Assembly (NCBI GenBank): GCA_030683605.1
Contig: JAUXPL010000044.1
Location: 1-36,107 of the forward strand
Direction: 5' to 3'
DNA length: 36,107 nt
Source: Candidatus Altimarinota bacterium
GTDB lineage: Bacteria > Patescibacteriota > Gracilibacteria > BD1-5 > UBA6164
The translations under genes were made by a program, and so were the position numbers. Positions 13,098-35,235 of the stretch are shown piece by piece (position 1 is the stretch's first letter; every line of letters starts with the position of its first letter). Under the pieces are notes generated by a model, which worked only from the letters and a program-made list of their open reading frames with translations, was not told where the DNA came from and ran no database searches.

Positions 13098-13174
13098 AAC
13101 CTCACCCTTGTCCACAGGATTCACCCACAAGGGGATCAATTCCCTCTCCTTGATGAGAGGGCTAGGGTGAGGTT
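13098..13174. repeat. Palindromic intergenic repeat
   Basis: Inverted ends AACCTCACCC / GGGTGAGGTT enclose an internal stem CCCTCTC/GAGAGGG and the shared words TTGTCCACAGGAT and CACAAGGGGAT. It lies between a terminator and pilB. It has the same ends as the copy inside the nucleotidyltransferase gene. Confidence 0.85.
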
Positions 13175-19046: not shown

Positions 19047-19140
19047 AAACCTCTCACTTGTCCATGGGATACACCTTCGGATAAATTCTCTCCCCTTCCA
19101 GCTAAAGACTGGACACGTATCAGGGGAAAGAGGCTGCAAA
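19047..19140. repeat. Palindromic intergenic repeat, long-loop variant
   Basis: Contains ACCTCTCACTTGTCC, ACACCTTCGGATAAATTCTC and the CCCCTT..AGGGG stem, here enlarged by CCAGCTAAAGACTGG and ACACGTATC, ending GGAAAGAGGCTGCAAA. The same enlarged loop recurs at 35195-35225. It stands just upstream of hicB. Confidence 0.85.
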
Positions 19141-19209
19141 AAGTATAAAAGTTTGTTTTATTTTATAAATGATTATAATATTATTATATTATTAATTAAT
19201 TAATTGAAT

Positions 19210-19413
19210 ATGACTAACATTGAAATAATATTTGATAATGAAACTTGATATTATGATGCTATTATTTTAGAAAAATGAATTGCAACTCAATGAAAATCCC
19301 TAGATGAAGTAGTAAAAAATATTTGAGAAGCATATTCATTATCTAGAGAAAAGAGTTTTTCACTAAATAAATTTAACATATCATTTAATGAAGATACTTA
19401 TGTGAATATTTAA
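19210..19413 (+). CDS. hicB: HicB-like antitoxin
   Basis: This 67-residue protein has the HicB partial RNase H-like fold: IEIIFDNETGYYDAIILEKGIATQGKSLDEVVKNIGEA follows the family pattern of beta-strands, a G-x-A/T-x-G-x-S/T-x-D/E-E turn and a helix. No DNA-binding C-terminal domain is present, so it probably neutralises the toxin by direct binding and may not autoregulate alone. It overlaps the downstream toxin gene by 14 bases, an arrangement typical of coupled toxin-antitoxin genes. Confidence 0.75.
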
Positions 19414-19648
19414 TACCGTAAAATTTAAAATATTAGAAAAATTTATTTTATGATTATGATATAATAAATATTCTCAAGAAGGTTCACATATAAAATATAA
19501 ATATTGAAATATGTCACTTACTATTCCAAAACATAAAGAAATTTCTAGATGAACTCTAAATAATATATTTAAAATTATCAGTTTACATATCTGAATAGAT
19601 AAAAATCAAATAGAAAATAATTTCATCAGTTATTATAATAAATTTTAA
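19400..19648 (+). CDS. hicA: HicA-like mRNA interferase toxin
   Basis: The 82-residue product matches HicA, the small double-stranded-RNA-binding-fold toxin that cleaves mRNA. It shows EGSHIKYKY with the catalytic histidine region, TIPKHKEISRGTLNNIFKII (the P-H-x-E-I-x-x-G-T-L pattern), and a C-terminal helix. The start ATG lies inside the end of hicB (overlap 19400-19413), and the second codon is TGA (Gly). Order antitoxin-toxin is the reverse of classical hicAB but occurs in the family. Confidence 0.8.
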
Positions 19649-19653
19649 TTATT

Positions 19654-19681
19654 AAAAAAGAACGAGCAATCGTTCTTTTTT
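19654..19681 (+). terminator. Terminator after hicBA
   Basis: Stem AAAAAAGAACG / CGTTCTTTTTT with a 6-base loop and a T-run, 5 bases past the toxin stop. Confidence 0.85.
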
Positions 19682-19689
19682 TGTTCCTC

Positions 19690-19766
19690 ACCTCTCACTT
19701 GAATATAAAACTACATTTTCTGTAGCCTCTTTCCCCTGATAAGGGGAGAGAATTCAAGTGAGAGGT
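19690..19766. repeat. Palindromic intergenic repeat, reverse orientation
   Basis: Ends ACCTCTCACTTGAAT / ATTCAAGTGAGAGGT form a 15-base perfect outer stem. The inner part TGTAGCCTCTTTCCCCTGAT is the reverse complement of the core found at 19100-19137. With the copy at 19047 it brackets hicBA in opposite orientations. Confidence 0.85.
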
Positions 19767-19782
19767 TATTTTAAGTAATTTC

Positions 19783-20868
19783 TTATGCATTCAGACTTTC
19801 TTTAATCAACTTAGGATTATTAGAATATTTCAATCATTCTTCTTCTGTTATCAATCATAGATGAATAAGTTTTATAATATCTGTTTCTAATAATTGCATT
19901 CATTCTCTAGATCACATTTGTATCACAGAAGGAATTTGATGTAAATCATTTTCTCTTATTAGATTAGCAACTGCTGCATTTTTTACTAGTATTTCTTTTG
20001 CTAATTTTACTCATGTACCATCAGTAGTTTTTAATAATCTTTGTGAAAATACAGCTACTAGAGAATCAGCTAATTGCATTCTGATTTGATTTTTGTCTTC
20101 TCAACTGAAACTATCCAGTATTCTAGTAATTGTTTGATATGCACTTCTAGTATGCAATGTTGAAAAAACAATATGACCAGTTTCTGCTAATCTCAGAGCC
20201 ATTTCCATTTCATTTTGATTTCTCATTTCCCCGAATAATATTACTTGAGGATTTTGTCTCATCGCTCAAATTAATCATGTTTCATAATCTGGTATATCTT
20301 TACCTATTTCCTTGTGCTCTATTATAGATTTTTTATGTGGATGAACATATTCTATAGGATCTTCTATCGTGATAATATGTTTAGTATAATTACTATTTAT
20401 ATAATCTATCATTGCTGCAAGTGTAGTAGTTTTACCAGATCAAGTTGGTCACGTAACTAATATCAATCATTGTCACAGTTTGGTTACTTCTTTATAAATA
20501 TCAGGTAATCACAAATCTTCTATATCTGGAATATCAGCAGTTAATAATCTCAAAACTACCATATAATGTGTCATTTGAAAAGATACATTACACCTAAATC
20601 TCCTATCTCAATGAAAAAATGAAAAATCCAAGTTTTTTTCTTGTAAAAGTCTAGTATGTTGAACATCTGTAATAAGAGATAATGCAAAATCCATTGAATC
20701 TTTTGGTGTAAATATATCCAATCAATCATCTATTTTTATAATTTCTCATCAGATTTTTATAGCTGGATATGTTCATACAGTTATATACATATCACTTCAT
20801 TCATTATCTATCATTACTTGAAGTAATTGATCTTTTATTATATGGTCCTCAATAATTGTTTTTTCCAT
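19783..20868 (-). CDS. pilT: Type IV pilus retraction ATPase PilT
   Basis: This 361-residue hexameric ATPase drives pilus retraction. Visible are the PilT N-terminal GSDMYITVG segment, Walker A GPTGSGKTTT (about 143-152, with two TGA glycines), EDPIEYVHPHKKS, the PilT feature HKEIGKD, AMRQNPQVILFGEMRN (Walker B) and the His box TGHIVFSTLHTRSA. The zinc cysteines of PilB are absent and the C-terminus is short, as expected for PilT. It is monocistronic, convergent to hicBA and distant from pilB, as is common. It provides the retraction partner of PilB/PilC encoded upstream. Confidence 0.93.
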
Positions 20869-20945
20869 TTATCTATAGTTTATTTAATATATATATTATT
20901 TTACTATACTTTATTTTAATAAGCAAGAAAAAGACAAAAAAAAAT

Positions 20946-21071
20946 ACCTCTCACTTGTCCACAGGATACCTCCCTTCGGGCATAAATTCTCTCCCCTTGA
21001 CAGGGGAAAGAGGCTGCAATTATATGTAGCCCCTTGTCCAGCAAAGCTGGATAAGGATTCAGGTAAGAGGT
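20946..21071. repeat. Palindromic intergenic repeat, double unit
   Basis: Starts ACCTCTCACTTGTCCACAGG, contains the CTCCCCTTGACAGGGGAAAGAGG hairpin, then a second unit GTCCAGCAAAGCTGGATAAGG, and ends AGGTAAGAGGT, which pairs with the start. It lies between the secreted-protein gene's 3' end and the pilT promoter region. Confidence 0.85.
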
Positions 21072-22909: not shown

Positions 22910-24001
22910 TTATTTCTCTTCTTTCTTTGGTTTATCTTTTTGTTCTATATCTTCTATTGAGATTCTATAACCGGTTAATTTAGACGCTAAATTAACATTT
23001 AAACCATTTTTTCAAACAGCTTTAGCTCTTTCTGTTGGTAATATATAACATATTGCTGATTCATTTTTTTCATCTACATCTACTTTTATAACTTCTGCTG
23101 GTGAAAGTGATTTTTTAAGTATTTCTCTAATATCACCTTTATTTGCTATTATATCTATTTTTTCACCAGATAATTCATCCATTACTCATTTTACTCTTAT
23201 TCCTTTTTGTCAAATAAGTGTACCAACCGCATCTATCTCATCAAAAGTAGTAGAAACAAGTAGTTTAGTTTTTACTCATGGTTGTCTTACTACATTATCA
23301 ATAGTAATTATTCAATCACCTATCTCTGGTACATTTTCTGCAAATATTGCATTAACTAATTCTGGTCTTTTTCTAGATAATACTACTTTAGGTGTACCTG
23401 TTTCATTTTTTGAAACTTCAGCAACATACAAGAAAAATCTTGCACCAGGAGTATAAGCATCTCTAGCAACTTGTTCTGATTTAGGTAATACTACTTGATT
23501 ACCATTATAATCAAATATAACTTTTCATCATTCTACCATTTCTACTTTCATACTTATTACTTGACCTTCTTTTCATTCAAATAAATCATATATTTTTTCT
23601 TTTTCACTATCACCTATTTTTTGAATTATTACTTGTCTAGCAGCTTGAGAAGCTATTCTTCAAAAACTCTCTCCTGCATCATCTGCATATATTTCATCAG
23701 TAACATCAAGCTCTATAATATCTCATTCTTCATAATCTGCTGCATCTTCTCATAATTCTTCAAAAGATATCTCAGTTGCAGAATTAGTTACTTCTTTTAC
23801 TACTGTTTTTTCTACAGTTATTTCTAGATTATAATTTTGTAAATCTAGTCTAACATTTATTTCTTCATCTTTTGTAGAATAATCTTTTTTATATGCTGTT
23901 TTTATTGCTGCTTCAATAATCTCAATCAATTTTTCTTTTGGTATTTTTTTCTCAATTGAAATAATATTAACAGCTTGTTCTATTTGTTTTAAATCTAACA
24001 T
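22910..24001 (-). CDS. nusA: Transcription elongation/termination factor NusA
   Basis: This 363-residue protein contains the N-terminal RNA-polymerase-binding domain (MLDLKQIEQAVNIISIEKKI, then EIIEAAIKTAYKKDY), an S1 domain (about 130-200), and two KH domains (LIGQKGIRVKGVMDELSGEK and ERAKAVGKNGLNVNLASKL). It lacks the acidic AR repeats of E. coli NusA, as in most other bacteria. The start is placed at 24001 to match the family's N-terminus. In-frame ATGs at 24025 and 24058 lie within or at the edge of a palindromic repeat and would add a repeat-derived extension. Downstream are rplI and ruvX. Confidence 0.92.
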
Positions 24002-24023
24002 AGTTTTTATAATTAACCCTTTC

Positions 24024-24110
24024 ATAACTCTATCCTGCCCTAAAGGATACACCCACAAGGGGATAAATCCTTTCTCTACTTAGAGAAAGTGGCTACAAAA
24101 TAAGGAAAAT
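24024..24110. repeat. Palindromic repeat in the nusA leader
   Basis: Contains GCCCTAAAGGATACACCCAC, AAGGGGATAAATCC and a TTTCTCTACTTAGAGAAAG stem with the usual TGGCTACAAA ending. It lies directly upstream of nusA, so it would be part of its 5' leader. Confidence 0.75.
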
Positions 24111-24134
24111 AAAGGAAAATAAAATATTTTTTTA

Positions 24135-24226
24135 AAACAAAACGAGAACTTGCTTTCACAAATCCCCGCTTCAGTTCTAAATACATTGTTATTTTAATAG
24201 TTTTTTATTTAATTGCAAATTTTTTA
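24135..24226. repeat. 92-bp direct repeat, left copy (downstream of DUF2442 gene)
   Basis: Identical to 24824-24915 except for one base (GAACTTGC versus GAACTTGT). The two copies bracket the DUF4160/DUF2442 gene pair with a period of 689 bases. The sequence includes AAACAAAACGAGAACTT and ATCCCCGCTTCAGTTC and ends in T-rich sequence. It contains no gene. Confidence 0.92.
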
Positions 24227-24249
24227 AATAGATTTAATTTATTCATTAT

Positions 24250-24492
24250 TTATTCATTATTTATTCATTTTTCATATAAAAAATCTGGAGATATATCTGC
24301 TCATGTAATCCAAGATATAGTATTTCCCTTAATTTTAAACATTTTAAAAATATCTTTTTGTTTTAATGGTCTAAATGTTAGTGAATTATTTTCCAAATAA
24401 GGAGACATATCAAAAACTTTTACATTTCAATCTTCAAATGTAATTTTTATATTATATTCTCATATATAAGATGCTTCTTTTACAAAGTGCAT
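24250..24492 (-). CDS. DUF2442 family protein, probable antitoxin partner
   Basis: The 80-residue product fits DUF2442: VKEASYIGEYNIKITFEDGNVKVFDMSPYL .. LTFRPL .. ISWITGADISPDFLY, with the characteristic F-x-D/E-G and W-x-x-G-x-D-I-S-P-x-x-L-Y ends. Members usually sit next to DUF4160 proteins in small two-gene units thought to be toxin-antitoxin-like. It starts 4 bases after the DUF4160 stop. Biochemical function is not established. Confidence 0.8.
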
Positions 24493-24496
24493 AAAT

Positions 24497-24769
24497 TTAT
24501 TTTTTAGAAATTAAAGGATCTATTTTTTTTGGAGTTTTCATATTTTGTACATCTTCCCAAGCTTCAAGTAATTCTTCGTTATATAATTCTGCCCATGAAA
24601 TAACTAATTTTTCAATTTTTGGAGGTAAGTTTCATTCAAGAATTTTTAACTCTTGTATAGAAATATAACAATTATAATCTTTATATATTACATGGAAATG
24701 TGGTGGATTATGGTCATTCCAATACACATATATACTTACTCAAAAAAATTCTGATAATTTTGGATTCAT
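24497..24769 (-). CDS. DUF4160 family protein
   Basis: The 90-residue product shows the DUF4160 hallmark F-G-x-x-I-x-x-Y-x-x-D-H-x-P-P-H-F-H-V (FGVSIYVYWNDHNPPHFHV) followed by a Y-K-D-Y segment and the C-terminal helix with LVISWAELYNEELLEAWED. The His-rich PPHFHV motif suggests metal or nucleic-acid chemistry, but the activity is unknown. It is the upstream gene of a pair with DUF2442. The pair is enclosed by 92-bp direct repeats. Confidence 0.85.
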
Positions 24770-24823
24770 TTTAATAATATTTAAAAATAATTATATATAT
24801 TATACATATTAATTTAAAAAATC

Positions 24824-24915
24824 AAACAAAACGAGAACTTGTTTTCACAAATCCCCGCTTCAGTTCTAAATACATTGTTATTTTAATAGTTTTTTATTTA
24901 ATTGCAAATTTTTTA
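24824..24915. repeat. 92-bp direct repeat, right copy
   Basis: Same sequence as 24135-24226 with one mismatch. It abuts the 3' end of the C1q-like gene (stop at 24917) and forms the upstream border of the DUF4160 gene's region. Confidence 0.92.
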
Positions 24916-24916
24916 T

Positions 24917-25537
24917 TTATGGTAATTGTTTTATGTATAATCAGCTTGATTGATCAATTGTTATGCTTTTAGTGTCAACTCATACAATTTGTACCTTTAT
25001 AGTATCTCATGCATTTAATTGTTGCATAGTATGAGCTGTTTGCTCTATTTCAGATGTAGTATCTACCAAATATGCTATATCAATAGTAATTCAATCATCA
25101 ATAACTCAATTTTTTACAAAATTTATAACAAATGTATCATCTCATTTAGTTGCATTTCAAATAAATGAAAGATTAGCTACAAATTCATATACTCATGTCT
25201 CAGCAGCAGTAAAAGTATAGGTAGATGTATTAAAAGTACCTGCTCATTTTTGTAACAGAATAGTATTAAATTGAACTGTTGAAACACTTCAAGTTGGTAA
25301 TAATTGATTAGAGCTCATATCTATATATAGATATGTTAATTGTCTGTCAACTTTATCTTTCAAATATGTTTGATTTTCTAACATCTGATTCCATGAAGTC
25401 GCTGTTAAAATATCTCATGTAGTTACAGATGTCATCGTTGTCCATGCTGCATATGTGATTCACATAAATCATAGAACAATAAAAAATCCTAGTCAAACAA
25501 GAACTCAATCCATTAATTTTTTAGTTATGTGTTTCAT
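24917..25537 (-). CDS. Membrane-anchored surface protein with C1q/TNF-like head
   Basis: The product has 206 residues. The N-terminal anchor (MDGVLVGLGFFIVLGFMGIT then YAAW) is followed by a stalk, VTTGDILTATSWNQMLEN, closely similar to the stalk of the two tail-collar proteins at 30774 and 31487. The C-terminal 125 residues look like a C1q/TNF-type jelly roll: FNTSTYTFTAAETGVYEFVANLSF, FVINFVKNG, and the final ITIDQSSGLYIKQL. Such heads trimerise and bind ligands. A role in host contact is inferred from the anchor and fold. Its 3' end abuts the right copy of the 92-bp repeat. Confidence 0.65.
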
Positions 25538-25564
25538 AATAATTTTTTATATAAATAGTAAATT

Positions 25565-25816
25565 TTAATTTTGATGATTATCAATTTTATAAACAACTAA
25601 TGTATTGTTTTCTCTATAACAAAATGCTCTATATTGTTTATTTATCCTAAAACTATATATTCAATCAGATTTAGGTTTTCTTAATTTAAAATCAGTTTTT
25701 CAAAAAACTCATTCAATTATTAAGTTTTTTGATTTTTTATATTGATTCAATAGATTTCTTTTATTTAAATCATTTAGTATATAATCTTTTTCAAATATAT
25801 TCTTTATTATAAGCAT
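25565..25816 (-). CDS. RelE-superfamily toxin
   Basis: The 83-residue product resembles RelE/ParE-like toxins: a short helical N-terminus (NKRNLLNQYKKSKN), beta-strands with DFKLRKPKSDGIYSFRINKQYRAF, and the C-terminal strand LVVYKIDNHQN, similar to the V-x-x-I-x-x-H end of the family. The mid-protein R-I-N-x-x-Y-R-A pattern is the usual substrate-contact strand. It lies 3 bases after the stop of a small gene (25820-26017), its probable antitoxin. Expected to cleave mRNA on ribosomes if RelE-like, but the exact subfamily is uncertain. Confidence 0.75.
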
Positions 25817-25819
25817 ATT

Positions 25820-26017
25820 TTATATATTAATTAATTTACTATTATCTGATTTAGCTTTTTCAAATTCTAATTTTTCTTCAAATGATAAATCATTAATAGA
25901 TTTAAATTGTAAATCTGGTAAGATGTATTTTTCCTCTATATAATAATATAATTCATACATATCAGAAAAATTTGTTTTTGATAATTTTAAATCACTTTCT
26001 ATAGTTATAGTAGTCAT
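25820..26017 (-). CDS. Probable antitoxin of the RelE-like toxin
   Basis: The 65-residue product starts MTTITIESDLKLSKTNFSDM, a strand followed by helices as in many RelB/Phd-like antitoxins, and ends in a charged, helical region (EEKLEFEKAKSDNSKLINI). It contains no TGA codon. Its stop is 3 bases from the toxin start, the usual antitoxin-toxin order. No defined family was recognised; the assignment rests on the pair. Confidence 0.65.
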   Translation of the reverse strand: MTTITIESDLKLSKTNFSDMYELYYYIEEKYILPDLQFKSINDLSFEEKLEFEKAKSDNSKLINI

Positions 26018-26119
26018 AATTTTTTTATTTAAAAAGTATTAAAATACATTATATAGAAATAATTAATATTTAAAAATCAATTTTTAAAATCAAAAAAATC
26101 CTATTTTAAACACAAAAAA

Positions 26120-26220
26120 ACCTCTCTCTTGAATTCTCTCCCCTTATCAGGGGAAAGAGGCTGCAATGAAATGTAGCCCCCTTGTCCAGCTAAAGCTGGA
26201 TAAGGATTCAGGTAAGAGGT
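26120..26220. repeat. Palindromic intergenic repeat, double unit
   Basis: Starts ACCTCTCTCTTGAATTCTC, carries the CTCCCCTTATCAGGGGAAAGAGG hairpin, then TGTAGCCCCCTTGTCCAGC, AAGCTGGATAAGGATTCAGG and the closing TAAGAGGT. Same architecture as 20946-21071. It lies downstream of ftsZ and upstream of the toxin-antitoxin pair. Confidence 0.85.
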
Positions 26221-27529: not shown

Positions 27530-27600
27530 TACATCTCTCTTATCCAGAAGATACACCTTCGGATAAATTCTCTACCGCTTTAGCGGGAAAGAGGCTACAT
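27530..27600. repeat. Palindromic repeat in the ftsA-ftsZ spacer
   Basis: Contains GATACACCTTCGGATAAATT and a changed inner stem: ACCGCT-tt-AGCGG instead of the usual CCCCTT..AGGGG, with both arms altered so pairing is kept, then GAAAGAGGCTACA. It would be transcribed between the two division genes. Confidence 0.85.
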
Positions 27601-27643
27601 ATAAATATATAATCTCTTAAAAATTCAGAAATGGTATAGTTTA

Positions 27644-30641: not shown

Positions 30642-30772
30642 GCCCCCTCTCAATTCTCCTGAAGTACAAAAAAATAACCGCTCTCTTGTCCACAGGATAC
30701 ACCTTCGGATAAATTCTCTCCCCTTGTCAGGGGAAAGAGGCTACAAATGTAGTTTCAAGAAAAGGTTATTTT
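30642..30772. repeat. Palindromic repeat between convergent genes
   Basis: Bears CTCTCTTGTCCACAGGATAC, ACCTTCGGATAAATTCTC and the CTCCCCTTGTCAGGGGAAAGAGG hairpin with the GCTACAAATGTAG ending. It starts right after the phosphatase stop and ends just before the stop of the tail-collar gene, so it may serve as the 3' end for both. Confidence 0.85.
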
Positions 30773-30773
30773 T

Positions 30774-31430
30774 TTATTGTTTTACACAGTATAATAATGC
30801 TACATTACGAGGACGAGGTGTTCTATAATGAACACTTGCACTCGTAAATGTTCATCATGTTCTTGACACTCAATTATCATTATTTCAGGCAATAGTTACC
30901 TCTGAATCAAAATTTAATACAGCTTCTTGATCTGTTAAAAAACGAATTCAAGCAAAAGAATTTCTACTATTAGAATAATTAGCATTTGATACATTAGATG
31001 CTATTTGAGTTGCTACTTGTGCACTTGCTAAAGTTCTACCTGTATCTATTCATCTACCTCAATCCAATCATCTGATAAATTCTCCTCTCAAATCAAGAGT
31101 TGTATTAGTTCAGCTTGTATTTTTTTCATCCCCACTTCAGTCAGCTGCTGTCCATCAACTAGGACAACTAGAACCATTAAATGCCATAACTGCTCATGTT
31201 GGAATATTTGATAATCATGATAATGTTGTTGTATGTCAATCAACAGTAGATTTAATTGTTCTTATATTTTCTTGTACTATATTAAATGTACTTGCAGTTA
31301 AAGTTTCTCCATTATTTACATCTGTCATAGATACATATGCTCAATATGCAATACCACTAACTCACACAATTGTAAGTATTCATAATCAAATACTTAATCA
31401 TTTCATATATCAATCTAAATATTTTTTCAT
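30774..31430 (-). CDS. Membrane-anchored phage-tail-collar-like surface protein 1
   Basis: The product has 218 residues. An N-terminal hydrophobic helix (about 10-32) is followed by the stalk YGAYVSMTDVNNGETLTAST, a short helical neck, then a tail-collar domain: VMAFNGSSCPSGWTAADGSG, LDLRGEFIRGLDGGRGIDTG and the end RPRNVALLYCVKQ. These are the hallmarks of phage tail-fibre collar/tip domains (P-x-G-W, DLRG-x-F-x-R-G-x-D, RPRN-x-A). No phage structural genes are nearby, and the transmembrane anchor suggests a cellular surface protein. It is adjacent to a paralogue at 31487. Two cysteines (SCPSG and LLYC) may pair. Confidence 0.8.
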
Positions 31431-31455
31431 TGGCTTATTTTAATTTTAAATATAC

Positions 31456-31492
31456 AAATGGCTTAAGCCATCAGTTGACAAGTGATTTATTG
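31456..31492. repeat. Direct repeat at the 3' end of collar protein 2
   Basis: CAAATGGCTTAAGCCATCAG, then TTGACAAGTGATTTATTG, including the 14-base palindrome ATGGCTTAAGCCAT. It recurs at 32085-32122 with few changes. It covers the gene's last codons and the spacer. Confidence 0.8.
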
Positions 31493-32059
31493 TTTTACAC
31501 AGTATAGTAGTGCAACATTACGAGGACGAGTTTCAGTTCATCAAACAGATGTTGTATCTCTATTTACAGTAAAAGACTGAAAATATCATAAGTTAGTACT
31601 TCCTCATCATGCTCATCATCATCAAGTAACTTGATGATGATGACTTTTTAATTCATCTGCTTGATAATCTCACAATGTTCTACTAACATCTCTACCATTT
31701 AAATCTCAATTCATTCATCTAATAAAAGTTCACCTCAAATCTAATGTAGTATTAGCTCAACTAGTATTTTTTTCATCCCCACTTCAATCTGCAGCAGTCC
31801 ATCATGTAGGACAAGATGTTCAGTTAAATGCTATAACTGCTCATACTGGTATTGTTCAACTACCTATTCAATCAACTGTAGTTTTCAGTACTGATACATT
31901 TTCTATCAATTGATTATAATTACTAGCTGTTAATGGATCTCATGTAGATACATTTGATAATGTAACATATGCTCAATATGCTACTCATGTAATTCCGACT
32001 ACTAATACAAATCAGATACCATTATATATTCATCATTTTATTTTTTGTAGAAATTCCAT
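31487..32059 (-). CDS. Membrane-anchored phage-tail-collar-like surface protein 2
   Basis: The product has 190 residues, paralogous to the gene at 30774. The start ATG at 32059 gives MEFLQKIKGG before the hydrophobic helix. The shared stalk is YGAYVTLSNVSTGDPLTASN. The head carries VIAFNGTSCPTGWTAADGSG, LDLRGTFIRGMNGD, a KSHHHQVTGGGG segment (the His-rich loop typical of tail-collar tips) and RPRNVALLYCVKQ. The His-rich and glycine-rich loop is mostly TGA. The two collar genes are tandem, separated by a 56-base spacer, and differ strongly in the loop region, as expected for ligand-binding tips. Confidence 0.82.
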
Positions 32060-32084
32060 AGTTTTTTTTTGTTATTTAAGTATT

Positions 32085-32122
32085 CAAATGGCTAAAGCCA
32101 TCTGTTGACAAGTGATTTATTG
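32085..32122. repeat. Orphan direct repeat resembling a collar-gene 3' end
   Basis: CAAATGGCTAAAGCCATCTG, then TTGACAAGTGATTTATTG. Corresponds to the end of the collar gene at 31487 including its stop region, but here no collar gene is attached, so it may be a remnant of a third tandem copy. Confidence 0.7.
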
Positions 32123-32200
32123 CAAAATTCATAATAATCACCTAAGAATTATGATACATTAATTATATTTATTTTATGTTTATATCAATATTTTAGTATT

Positions 32201-32291
32201 ATTTTTACTTTACTTTTTAAATAAATATTTCATAAAAAATATTAAAAATATAATAAGTTTTTTGTAAAGCTAAAATTGTATTGCATACTTT
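32201..32291. repeat. 91-bp direct repeat, left copy, upstream of BrnT-like cassette
   Basis: Matches 32930-33020 with a diverged stretch near its left end and near identity after it (ATTTCATAAAAAATATTAAA, then AAGTTTTTTGTAAAGC and TAAAATTGTATTGCATACTT). The two copies bracket the toxin-antitoxin pair with a period of 729 bases. Confidence 0.9.
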
Positions 32292-32301
32292 TATAAATTA
32301 T

Positions 32302-32329
32302 TTGACTTAATATTAAAAATGTATACTAT
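32302..32329 (+). promoter_or_regulatory. Candidate promoter of the BrnT-like pair
   Basis: TTGACT at 32302-32307 with TACTAT at 32324-32329 (16-base spacer), or TATACT at 32322. It lies just inside the left 91-bp repeat and about 36 bases before the toxin start. Confidence 0.45.
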
Positions 32330-32364: not shown

Positions 32365-32613
32365 ATGTGAAAAATAATACTATGGAGTAATGAAAAAAAT
32401 GAAATTTTAAAAAAGACTAGATGAATATGTTTTGAAGATGTATTAAGTTCTGAAATAATTGATGATTTAGAACATCCTAACAAAGAAAAATATCCAAATC
32501 AAAGAATTATGATTGTTGAAATAGATTGATATCCTTATGTTTGCCCATATATAGAAAACAAAAATGAAATATTTTTAAAAACACTGTTCCCAGATAGAAG
32601 ATATAAAAAATAG
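32365..32613 (+). CDS. BrnT-like toxin
   Basis: This 82-residue protein matches the BrnT-related toxin group often paired with CopG antitoxins: WSNEKNEILKKTRGICFEDV, HPNKEKYPNQRIMIVEIDGY, and FLKTLFPDRRYKK. The E-K-N-x-x-L-K..R-G-x-x-F-E-D-V start and the F-L-K-T-x-x-P-x-R-x end are characteristic. It would act as an RNase-type toxin. The second codon is TGA. It is followed 29 bases downstream by the antitoxin gene, the toxin-first order usual for BrnTA-like modules. The whole unit is enclosed by 91-bp direct repeats. Confidence 0.75.
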
Positions 32614-32642: not shown

Positions 32643-32921
32643 ATGAAAAAAAATGAATTCCTAGATATAGAAGAAAAAGAAATAATTGAATCATTTGAAA
32701 AATGAGAATTTGTAAGTGTATCTAATTTAGAAGAAAGAAAAAAAGAATTAAAACAAAGTTTTAAAAAGACTATTAATTCTAGAAGACCGATAAATATTAG
32801 AGTATTAGAAACAGATATACATAAACTGAAAACAAAAGCAATAGAAGAATGATTACCATACCAAACTCTTATTTCAAAAGTTTTACATGATTACACTACT
32901 TGAAAATTAATTTCTAAGTAG
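32643..32921 (+). CDS. CopG/BrnA-like antitoxin
   Basis: The 92-residue product has a Glu-rich N-terminal toxin-binding half and a C-terminal ribbon-helix-helix-type segment: RRPINIRVLETDIHKLKTKA, then EEGLPYQTLISKVLHDYTTG. The I-x-I-R-V strand and the K-x-K-A-x-x-x-G-x-P-Y-Q-T-L-I-S helices are hallmarks of CopG-like antitoxins, which bind DNA as dimers and repress their own operon. It is the partner of the toxin at 32365. Confidence 0.8.
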
Positions 32922-32929
32922 TTTTTTTT

Positions 32930-33020
32930 ATTTTTACTTTACATTTCTAGTTATTATTTCATAAAAAATATTAAAAATAGAATAAGTTTTTTGTAAAGCT
33001 AAAATTGTATTGCATACTTT
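32930..33020. repeat. 91-bp direct repeat, right copy
   Basis: Second copy of the sequence at 32201-32291. It starts 9 bases after the antitoxin stop and ends 54 bases before the VirB4-like gene, so it may contribute to that gene's promoter region. Confidence 0.9.
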
Positions 33021-33074
33021 ACAATTGATGTTTAATAATTAAAATAATCGAGAAATAATAACTAAGTCTTTTAC

Positions 33075-35014: not shown

Positions 35015-35142
35015 ATTTTTTTTATAGAATATCACAGCTTCTAAAAACCTCTTAAATGAGGTAGTTATATGATTATATCTAGTTTGTCCCGAAAACAATA
35101 CATATAGAGTAATTATTTTAACTTCAAAAGAAAAAAATAATT

Positions 35143-35235
35143 TAACCTCTCTCTTGTCCATAGGATAGCTCCCTTCGGGCATAAATTCCTCCCCTTCCAG
35201 CTAAAGACTGGACACGTATCAGGGGAAAGAGGCTC
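35143..35235. repeat. Palindromic repeat in the rplK leader, long-loop variant
   Basis: Starts AACCTCTCTCTTGTCCATAG, has CTCCCTTCGGGCATAAATTC, and the enlarged loop CCAGCTAAAGACTGG with ACACGTATCAGGGGAAAGAG. Same enlarged form as 19047-19140. Confidence 0.85.

What the first reader, a model, noticed from the sequence alone, without database searches (positions are those of the whole stretch)
24135..24915. DUF4160/DUF2442 pair bounded by nearly identical 92-bp direct repeats
Two 92-base copies with a single mismatch enclose only these two small genes (period 689). A toxin-antitoxin-like pair framed by long direct repeats with no transposase looks like a cassette that can be gained or lost by recombination or a trans-acting enzyme. 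I know of no described cassette system of this form.
Basis: partly seen in the sequence, partly recalled or inferred. Interest (0 to 1): 0.8.

Follow-up and report, generated by a model that had tools for sequence, protein, structure and literature searches.

The report
Toxin-antitoxin pair between duplicated nusA promoters
In a Gracilibacteria genome a known kind of toxin-antitoxin gene pair (DUF4160/DUF2442) sits between two copies of the 92-base control region that normally lies once in front of the core gene nusA, which is best read as a recent insertion with a long target duplication, a described but poorly explained way for such modules to enter genomes.

Summary
The 92 bp is not a cassette end. 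It is the native ftsZ-nusA spacer, with a promoter-like site and a conserved 15-bp terminator-like hairpin, and it is single in every relative examined. Some relatives have ftsZ-spacer-nusA with nothing inserted, others carry different genes there, and G002 carries the same pair next to a single copy. The 92-bp sequence flanks no other gene pair.

The arrangement recurs with unrelated repeats: a BrnT-like/CopG pair in this window (~118 bp), and elsewhere in the genome a YafQ-like pair (66 bp) and an R-M system (179 bp), each with an empty single-copy site in a congener. [quoted passage not shown] Synonymous divergence (0.19-0.28 for the pair, 0.69-1.7 for neighbours) indicates that the pair moved horizontally between congeners. 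I favour incoming DNA anchored by homology on the nusA side and joined illegitimately on the other. It is a new member of a known kind, not a new cassette system.

The parts
24135..24226 (-). Repeat copy next to nusA: native nusA upstream region (promoter-like site plus terminator-like hairpin)
24824..24915 (-). Second repeat copy, upstream of the toxin-antitoxin operon and directly after the C1q-like gene
24497..24769 (-). DUF4160 protein, DhiT-like toxin (90 aa, code 25)
   Evidence: Pfam E 6e-21; toxin role by homology, PMC8198452 and PMC12724237
24250..24492 (-). DUF2442 protein, DhiA-like antitoxin (80 aa, code 25)
   Evidence: Pfam E 1e-14; antitoxin role by homology
24026..24134 (-). 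Leader between repeat and nusA, nearly identical in G002 only (79 of 81 aligned bases)
22910..24025 (-). nusA
   Evidence: Pfam NusA_N E 5e-27, KH_5 E 9e-19
24917..25537 (-). C1q-like protein gene; a gene with a related N-terminus precedes the single copy in G004
32199..32320 (+). Second case, left copy of the region upstream of the virB4-like gene
32928..33045 (+). Second case, right copy; single in G004 and G002
32365..32613 (+). BrnT-like toxin candidate (82 aa; identified by eye, no Pfam match)
32643..32921 (+). CopG-type antitoxin candidate (92 aa; Pfam E 2e-5, just under the curated cut-off)

Best explanation
A DhiTA-type toxin-antitoxin operon was inserted into the ftsZ-nusA spacer with a long (92-bp) target duplication. 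Shown: the repeat is the native nusA upstream region, relatives have it once, and the pair is much less diverged between G000 and G002 than its neighbours. Inferred: DNA from a congener in which the pair already lay upstream of this region (the G002 arrangement) entered a recipient with C1q gene-spacer-nusA (the G004 arrangement), recombined by homology on the spacer/nusA side and was joined without extended homology on the other side, so that the recipient's own copy was kept. The two copies were later made alike by gene conversion. Functionally (inferred), the TA operon now sits behind a copy of the nusA promoter and attenuator-like hairpin while nusA keeps its own; the two copies would let the pair be lost cleanly by recombination. 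No dedicated recombinase is needed.
For: Single copy directly between ftsZ and nusA in G003, G032 and G012. G004 has ftsZ-C1q gene-copy-nusA, G002 has pair-copy-nusA. dS of the pair to G002 is 0.19-0.28 against 0.69-1.7 for six neighbouring genes. The leader between copy and nusA is 79/81 identical to G002 and different in G004. Similarity to G002 drops to 70% in the 53 bases upstream of the pair and stops at an A-rich junction where the second copy starts. Same pattern with unrelated repeats and empty sites at three other TA or R-M loci. ComEC is encoded, Ku was not found.
Against: The nusA-proximal copy is 88% like G002 and 99% like the other copy, so the donor-tract model needs later conversion between the copies. 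G002 itself is not the donor, only the same arrangement. For the three other loci no donor arrangement was found in 33 relatives, so a single mechanism for all four is not shown. All genomes are draft or metagenome assemblies.
Confidence: 0.6

Rival explanations
1. True de novo target duplication. The module was captured at a break with ends staggered by 60-180 bp, or copied in by template switching that re-copied the flank, without any donor copy of the repeat.
For: Copies of one locus are alike (63/66, 176/179, 91/92) and the empty sites hold exactly one copy. For three loci no relative carries the module at that site.
Against: For the DUF pair, G002 shares pair, junction and leader at the same site, which a fresh insertion in this lineage would not predict.
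Confidence: 0.2
2. Old insertion with loss. The copy-pair-copy form existed in the common ancestor; recombination between the copies removed the pair in G004, and G002 lost the outer copy. The copies stay alike by gene conversion.
For: The G004 form is what clean excision would leave. Pair and junction are shared with G002.
Against: dS of the pair to G002 (0.19-0.28) is far below that of neighbours. No trace of an outer copy in G002 above shuffled DNA (score 34, 95% of shuffles 36).
Confidence: 0.12
3. A dedicated cassette system: the 92-bp sequence is a recombination site recognised by an enzyme in trans.
For: Exact direct repeats framing one pair; lone copies elsewhere.
Against: The lone copies are all the nusA spacer. 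No other pair is framed by this sequence; other modules have unrelated repeats. Conservation of the sequence is explained by the nusA promoter and hairpin.
Confidence: 0.04
4. Assembly artefact.
For: Draft assembly of 57 contigs; reads were not available.
Against: Each junction has an independent counterpart: pair-copy-nusA in G002 and C1q gene-copy in G004. A 92-bp repeat is shorter than usual reads. The pattern recurs at other loci.
Confidence: 0.03

Closest known systems
Insertion with long target duplication (Nobusato et al. 2000, Helicobacter pylori; read here through PMC1643837 and PMC3874152)
   Same: Module present in one genome between two direct copies, of order 100 bp, of a sequence that is single at the empty site of a related genome; no transposase. 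Its classical cargo, an R-M system, shows the same pattern in this genome (C36).
   Different: Cargo here is a toxin-antitoxin pair, the host is a Gracilibacterium, and a relative carries the same pair at the same site with one copy.
DhiTA type II toxin-antitoxin system (DUF4160/DUF2442; PMC8198452, PMC12724237)
   Same: Same domain pair, same toxin-first gene order, two small adjacent genes.
   Different: Chromosomal beside nusA, framed by copies of the nusA upstream region; activity not tested.
Homology-facilitated illegitimate recombination (PMC3240628)
   Same: One end joined by homology, the other illegitimately; fits the shared leader and the abrupt outer junction.
   Different: Inferred from sequence only; needs later conversion of the repeat; not shown to make long duplications here.
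Integron-type or other repeat-bounded gene cassettes (from general knowledge)
   Same: Promoterless-looking small genes between direct copies of a short sequence.
   Different: The repeat is not shared between cassettes and is a core-gene control region.

Membership tests
Insertion with long target duplication | Direct duplication of order 100 bp framing the inserted genes | tested here: met
   92 bp, one mismatch
Insertion with long target duplication | Related genome has the site with one copy and no insert | tested here: met
   G003, G032, G012 for the nusA site; G004 for three other loci
Insertion with long target duplication | Duplicated sequence is locus-specific, not a shared element end | tested here: met
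   Unique to the locus
Insertion with long target duplication | Duplication made by the insertion event itself | tested here: inconclusive
   G002 carries the pair with one copy; mosaic similarity
DhiTA toxin-antitoxin system | Adjacent DUF4160 and DUF2442 genes, toxin gene first | tested here: met
   order as in PMC8198452
DhiTA toxin-antitoxin system | Toxicity of DUF4160 and neutralisation by DUF2442 | not testable with these tools
   Shown for relatives only (PMC8198452, PMC12724237)
Repeat-defined cassette system | Same repeat frames different genes at several sites | tested here: not met
Transposon | Transposase gene or terminal inverted repeats | tested here: not met
   No such gene between the copies; insert ends are not inverted repeats by inspection
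Homology-facilitated illegitimate recombination | Donor tract with homology at one end and an illegitimate junction at the other | tested here: inconclusive
   Leader and pair G002-like, abrupt outer junction, but repeat native

The most novel reading that the evidence does not exclude
TA and R-M modules share an undescribed transfer route that inserts them beside core genes with 60-180 bp target duplications, copying the neighbour's control region so that the module is expressed at once and the neighbour stays intact.
Probability: 0.1. Interest if true: 0.75.

Novelty: new member of a known kind. Interest (0 to 1): 0.4.

Why it matters
How small toxin-antitoxin and restriction modules move without transposases is an open question. 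The long-target-duplication pattern was described in 2000, and the sources I could read give no settled mechanism. Here one genome has four cases with empty sites in congeners, and for one of them donor-like, recipient-like and product arrangements are all seen, with divergence rates that indicate which stretches moved. That makes a recombination model testable in a competent laboratory strain.

Tried and rejected
Cassette family: the 92-mer is found nowhere else in the genome, and the full-length or near full-length matches in relatives that I placed are the nusA site. Known RNA: no Rfam match in 23900-25100 at E<=1. Other DUF4160 loci: besides this genome only G002 and two genomes of the same order; not framed by such repeats, apart from one 45-bp repeat farther out in L212. 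Dispersed REP-like palindromes explain many other local repeats and were set aside. One repeat-framed unit (C50:30106) encloses EF-Tu and ribosomal-protein-like genes and may be repeated tRNA genes (not checked). TA loci in other genomes showed no excess of framing repeats over NUDIX control loci: 2 of 18 against 2 of 30, so the pattern is not general for TA pairs. Furuta 2010 was not held.

Full report
OBSERVATION. The longest exact repeat in 100 simulated windows was 20 bp, against 73 bp observed. The window reads with TGA as glycine (code 25), and the records of the closest nusA loci are named Candidatus Gracilibacteria or Patescibacteria. Only two genes lie between the copies, DUF4160 then DUF2442, both on the minus strand.

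WHAT THE PAIR IS. The same family pair was tested in Dickeya dadantii as DhiTA, with switched (toxin-first) gene order (PMC8198452). In Thermus thermophilus a plasmid lacking the DUF2442 gene could not be introduced, while one lacking the DUF4160 gene could (PMC12724237). So DUF4160 is the toxin and DUF2442 the antitoxin, by homology. Both genes are under purifying selection against G002 (dN/dS 0.05 and 0.14).

WHAT THE REPEAT IS. It is the spacer upstream of nusA. In G003 and G032 it lies once, directly between nusA and ftsZ; the named records corresponding to G003 and G012 show the same. In the alignment of copies a TTGCAA box and a TAAAAT-like box are largely conserved, followed by a 15-pair hairpin and a T-run. 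The single-sequence fold has z = -6. Promoter-like matches as such are no more frequent than chance in this AT-rich DNA, so the promoter rests on conservation and position. I infer a nusA promoter with an attenuator-like leader; no Rfam family matches. The hairpin motif occurs in this genome only in the two copies.

HOW RELATIVES LOOK. Reading towards nusA: G003, G032, G012: ftsZ, copy, nusA. G004: ftsZ, C1q-like gene, copy, nusA. G001: ftsZ, two other genes (one a subtilase by eye), copy, nusA. G002: ftsZ, a short gene (HicB-like by eye), the same DUF pair, one copy, nusA. This genome: ftsZ, a ParE/HigB-like pair, a C1q-like gene, copy, DUF pair, copy, nusA. The ftsZ-nusA spacer is therefore a site of repeated insertion, and the second copy is seen only here.

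THE PATTERN RECURS. In the same window a BrnT-like/CopG pair lies between ~118-bp copies of the region upstream of a virB4-like gene; G004 and G002 have one copy and no pair. A YafQ-like pair at C23:40318-40785 is framed by 66-68 bp copies and G004 has one copy. An R-M system (HinP1I-like endonuclease, HTH protein, C5 methylase) at C36:43864-46197 is framed by 179-bp copies that include the 3' end of a gene I recognise as rplS; G004, G001 and G003 have one copy. The repeats of the four loci are unrelated and no common insert ends are visible. Small same-strand gene pairs are framed by locus-specific repeats in 4 of 64 cases, against 6 of 1424 single genes (P 5e-4) and 2 of 1425 other neighbours (P 4e-5). 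The framed pairs had been seen before this test was designed and the ORF calls are my own, so these P values are indicative only. In an insertion list made without regard to content, mostly from about 420 kb of G004, overlaps of 40 bp or more were found for two TA-like pairs and a few other genes, while most insertions had overlaps near zero. The pattern is thus not exclusive to TA or R-M modules, and TA pairs also occur without it.

HOW IT AROSE. Synonymous divergence between this genome and G002 is 0.19-0.28 for the pair but 0.69-1.7 for six neighbouring genes, and 0.43-0.63 for neighbours even against the nearer G004. The pair genes are short (42 and 48 synonymous sites), but the difference is large. 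The pair therefore most likely moved between lineages after they split. The leader between the copy and nusA is also nearly identical to G002 (79 of 81 aligned bases) and different in G004, while nusA itself is at background. Similarity to G002 fades upstream of the pair and ends where the second copy begins. I read this as an incoming tract (pair, copy, leader) that recombined by homology on the nusA side and was joined illegitimately on the other, keeping the recipient's own copy. The weak point is that the nusA-proximal copy is 99% like the other copy and only 88% like G002, so conversion between the copies must be assumed. For the other three loci no donor arrangement was found, and a staggered break or template switch is as likely there. 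The genome encodes ComEC and no Ku was found, which fits DNA uptake with RecA-type recombination but proves nothing.

COMPARISON WITH THE KNOWN. The pattern matches insertion with long target duplication, described from H. [quoted passage not shown] In the papers I could search I found no report of it for TA pairs or for Gracilibacteria, but that search was limited to open-licence papers.

VERDICT. Observation confirmed; the cassette reading is not supported in its specific form; a new member of a known kind, with a useful set of donor-like, recipient-like and product arrangements.

Noticed in passing
24135-24190 and 24824-24880 (-): Conserved hairpin (15 pairs) followed by a T-run in the nusA upstream region across the genus and some of the family; looks like a nusA attenuator and matches no Rfam family.
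   Followed up: partly
24917-26017: The ftsZ-nusA spacer also carries a ParE/HigB-like toxin with a small upstream partner gene and a C1q-like protein gene; relatives carry other genes in the same spacer.
   Followed up: partly
30774-32122: Two paralogous surface or tail-collar-like genes with patchy similarity; G004 has several more in the same place, a variable tandem array.
   Followed up: no
13099-13153, 19053-21015, 24027-24081, 26101-26168, 27535-27602, 30681-30748, 35127-35234: Dispersed REP-like palindromic repeats (CTCTCCCC...GGGGAAAGAGGCT) in intergenic regions of this window and the genome.
   Followed up: no
G000:C36:43684-46366 (L112): R-M system (HinP1I-like endonuclease, HTH protein, C5 methylase) framed by 179-bp copies; no relative of the endonuclease in 33 related genomes.
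   Followed up: yes
G000:C2:7424-12533 (L005): Row of NYN, ATPase and Fic genes separated by near-identical REP-like repeats; the Fic gene and its partner also have 193-bp locus-specific repeats.
   Followed up: partly
G000:C50:141-3339 and C42:1011-4929: Clusters of several small TA-like pairs separated by related upstream repeats of 50-240 bp, as if pairs had been added one after another.
   Followed up: no
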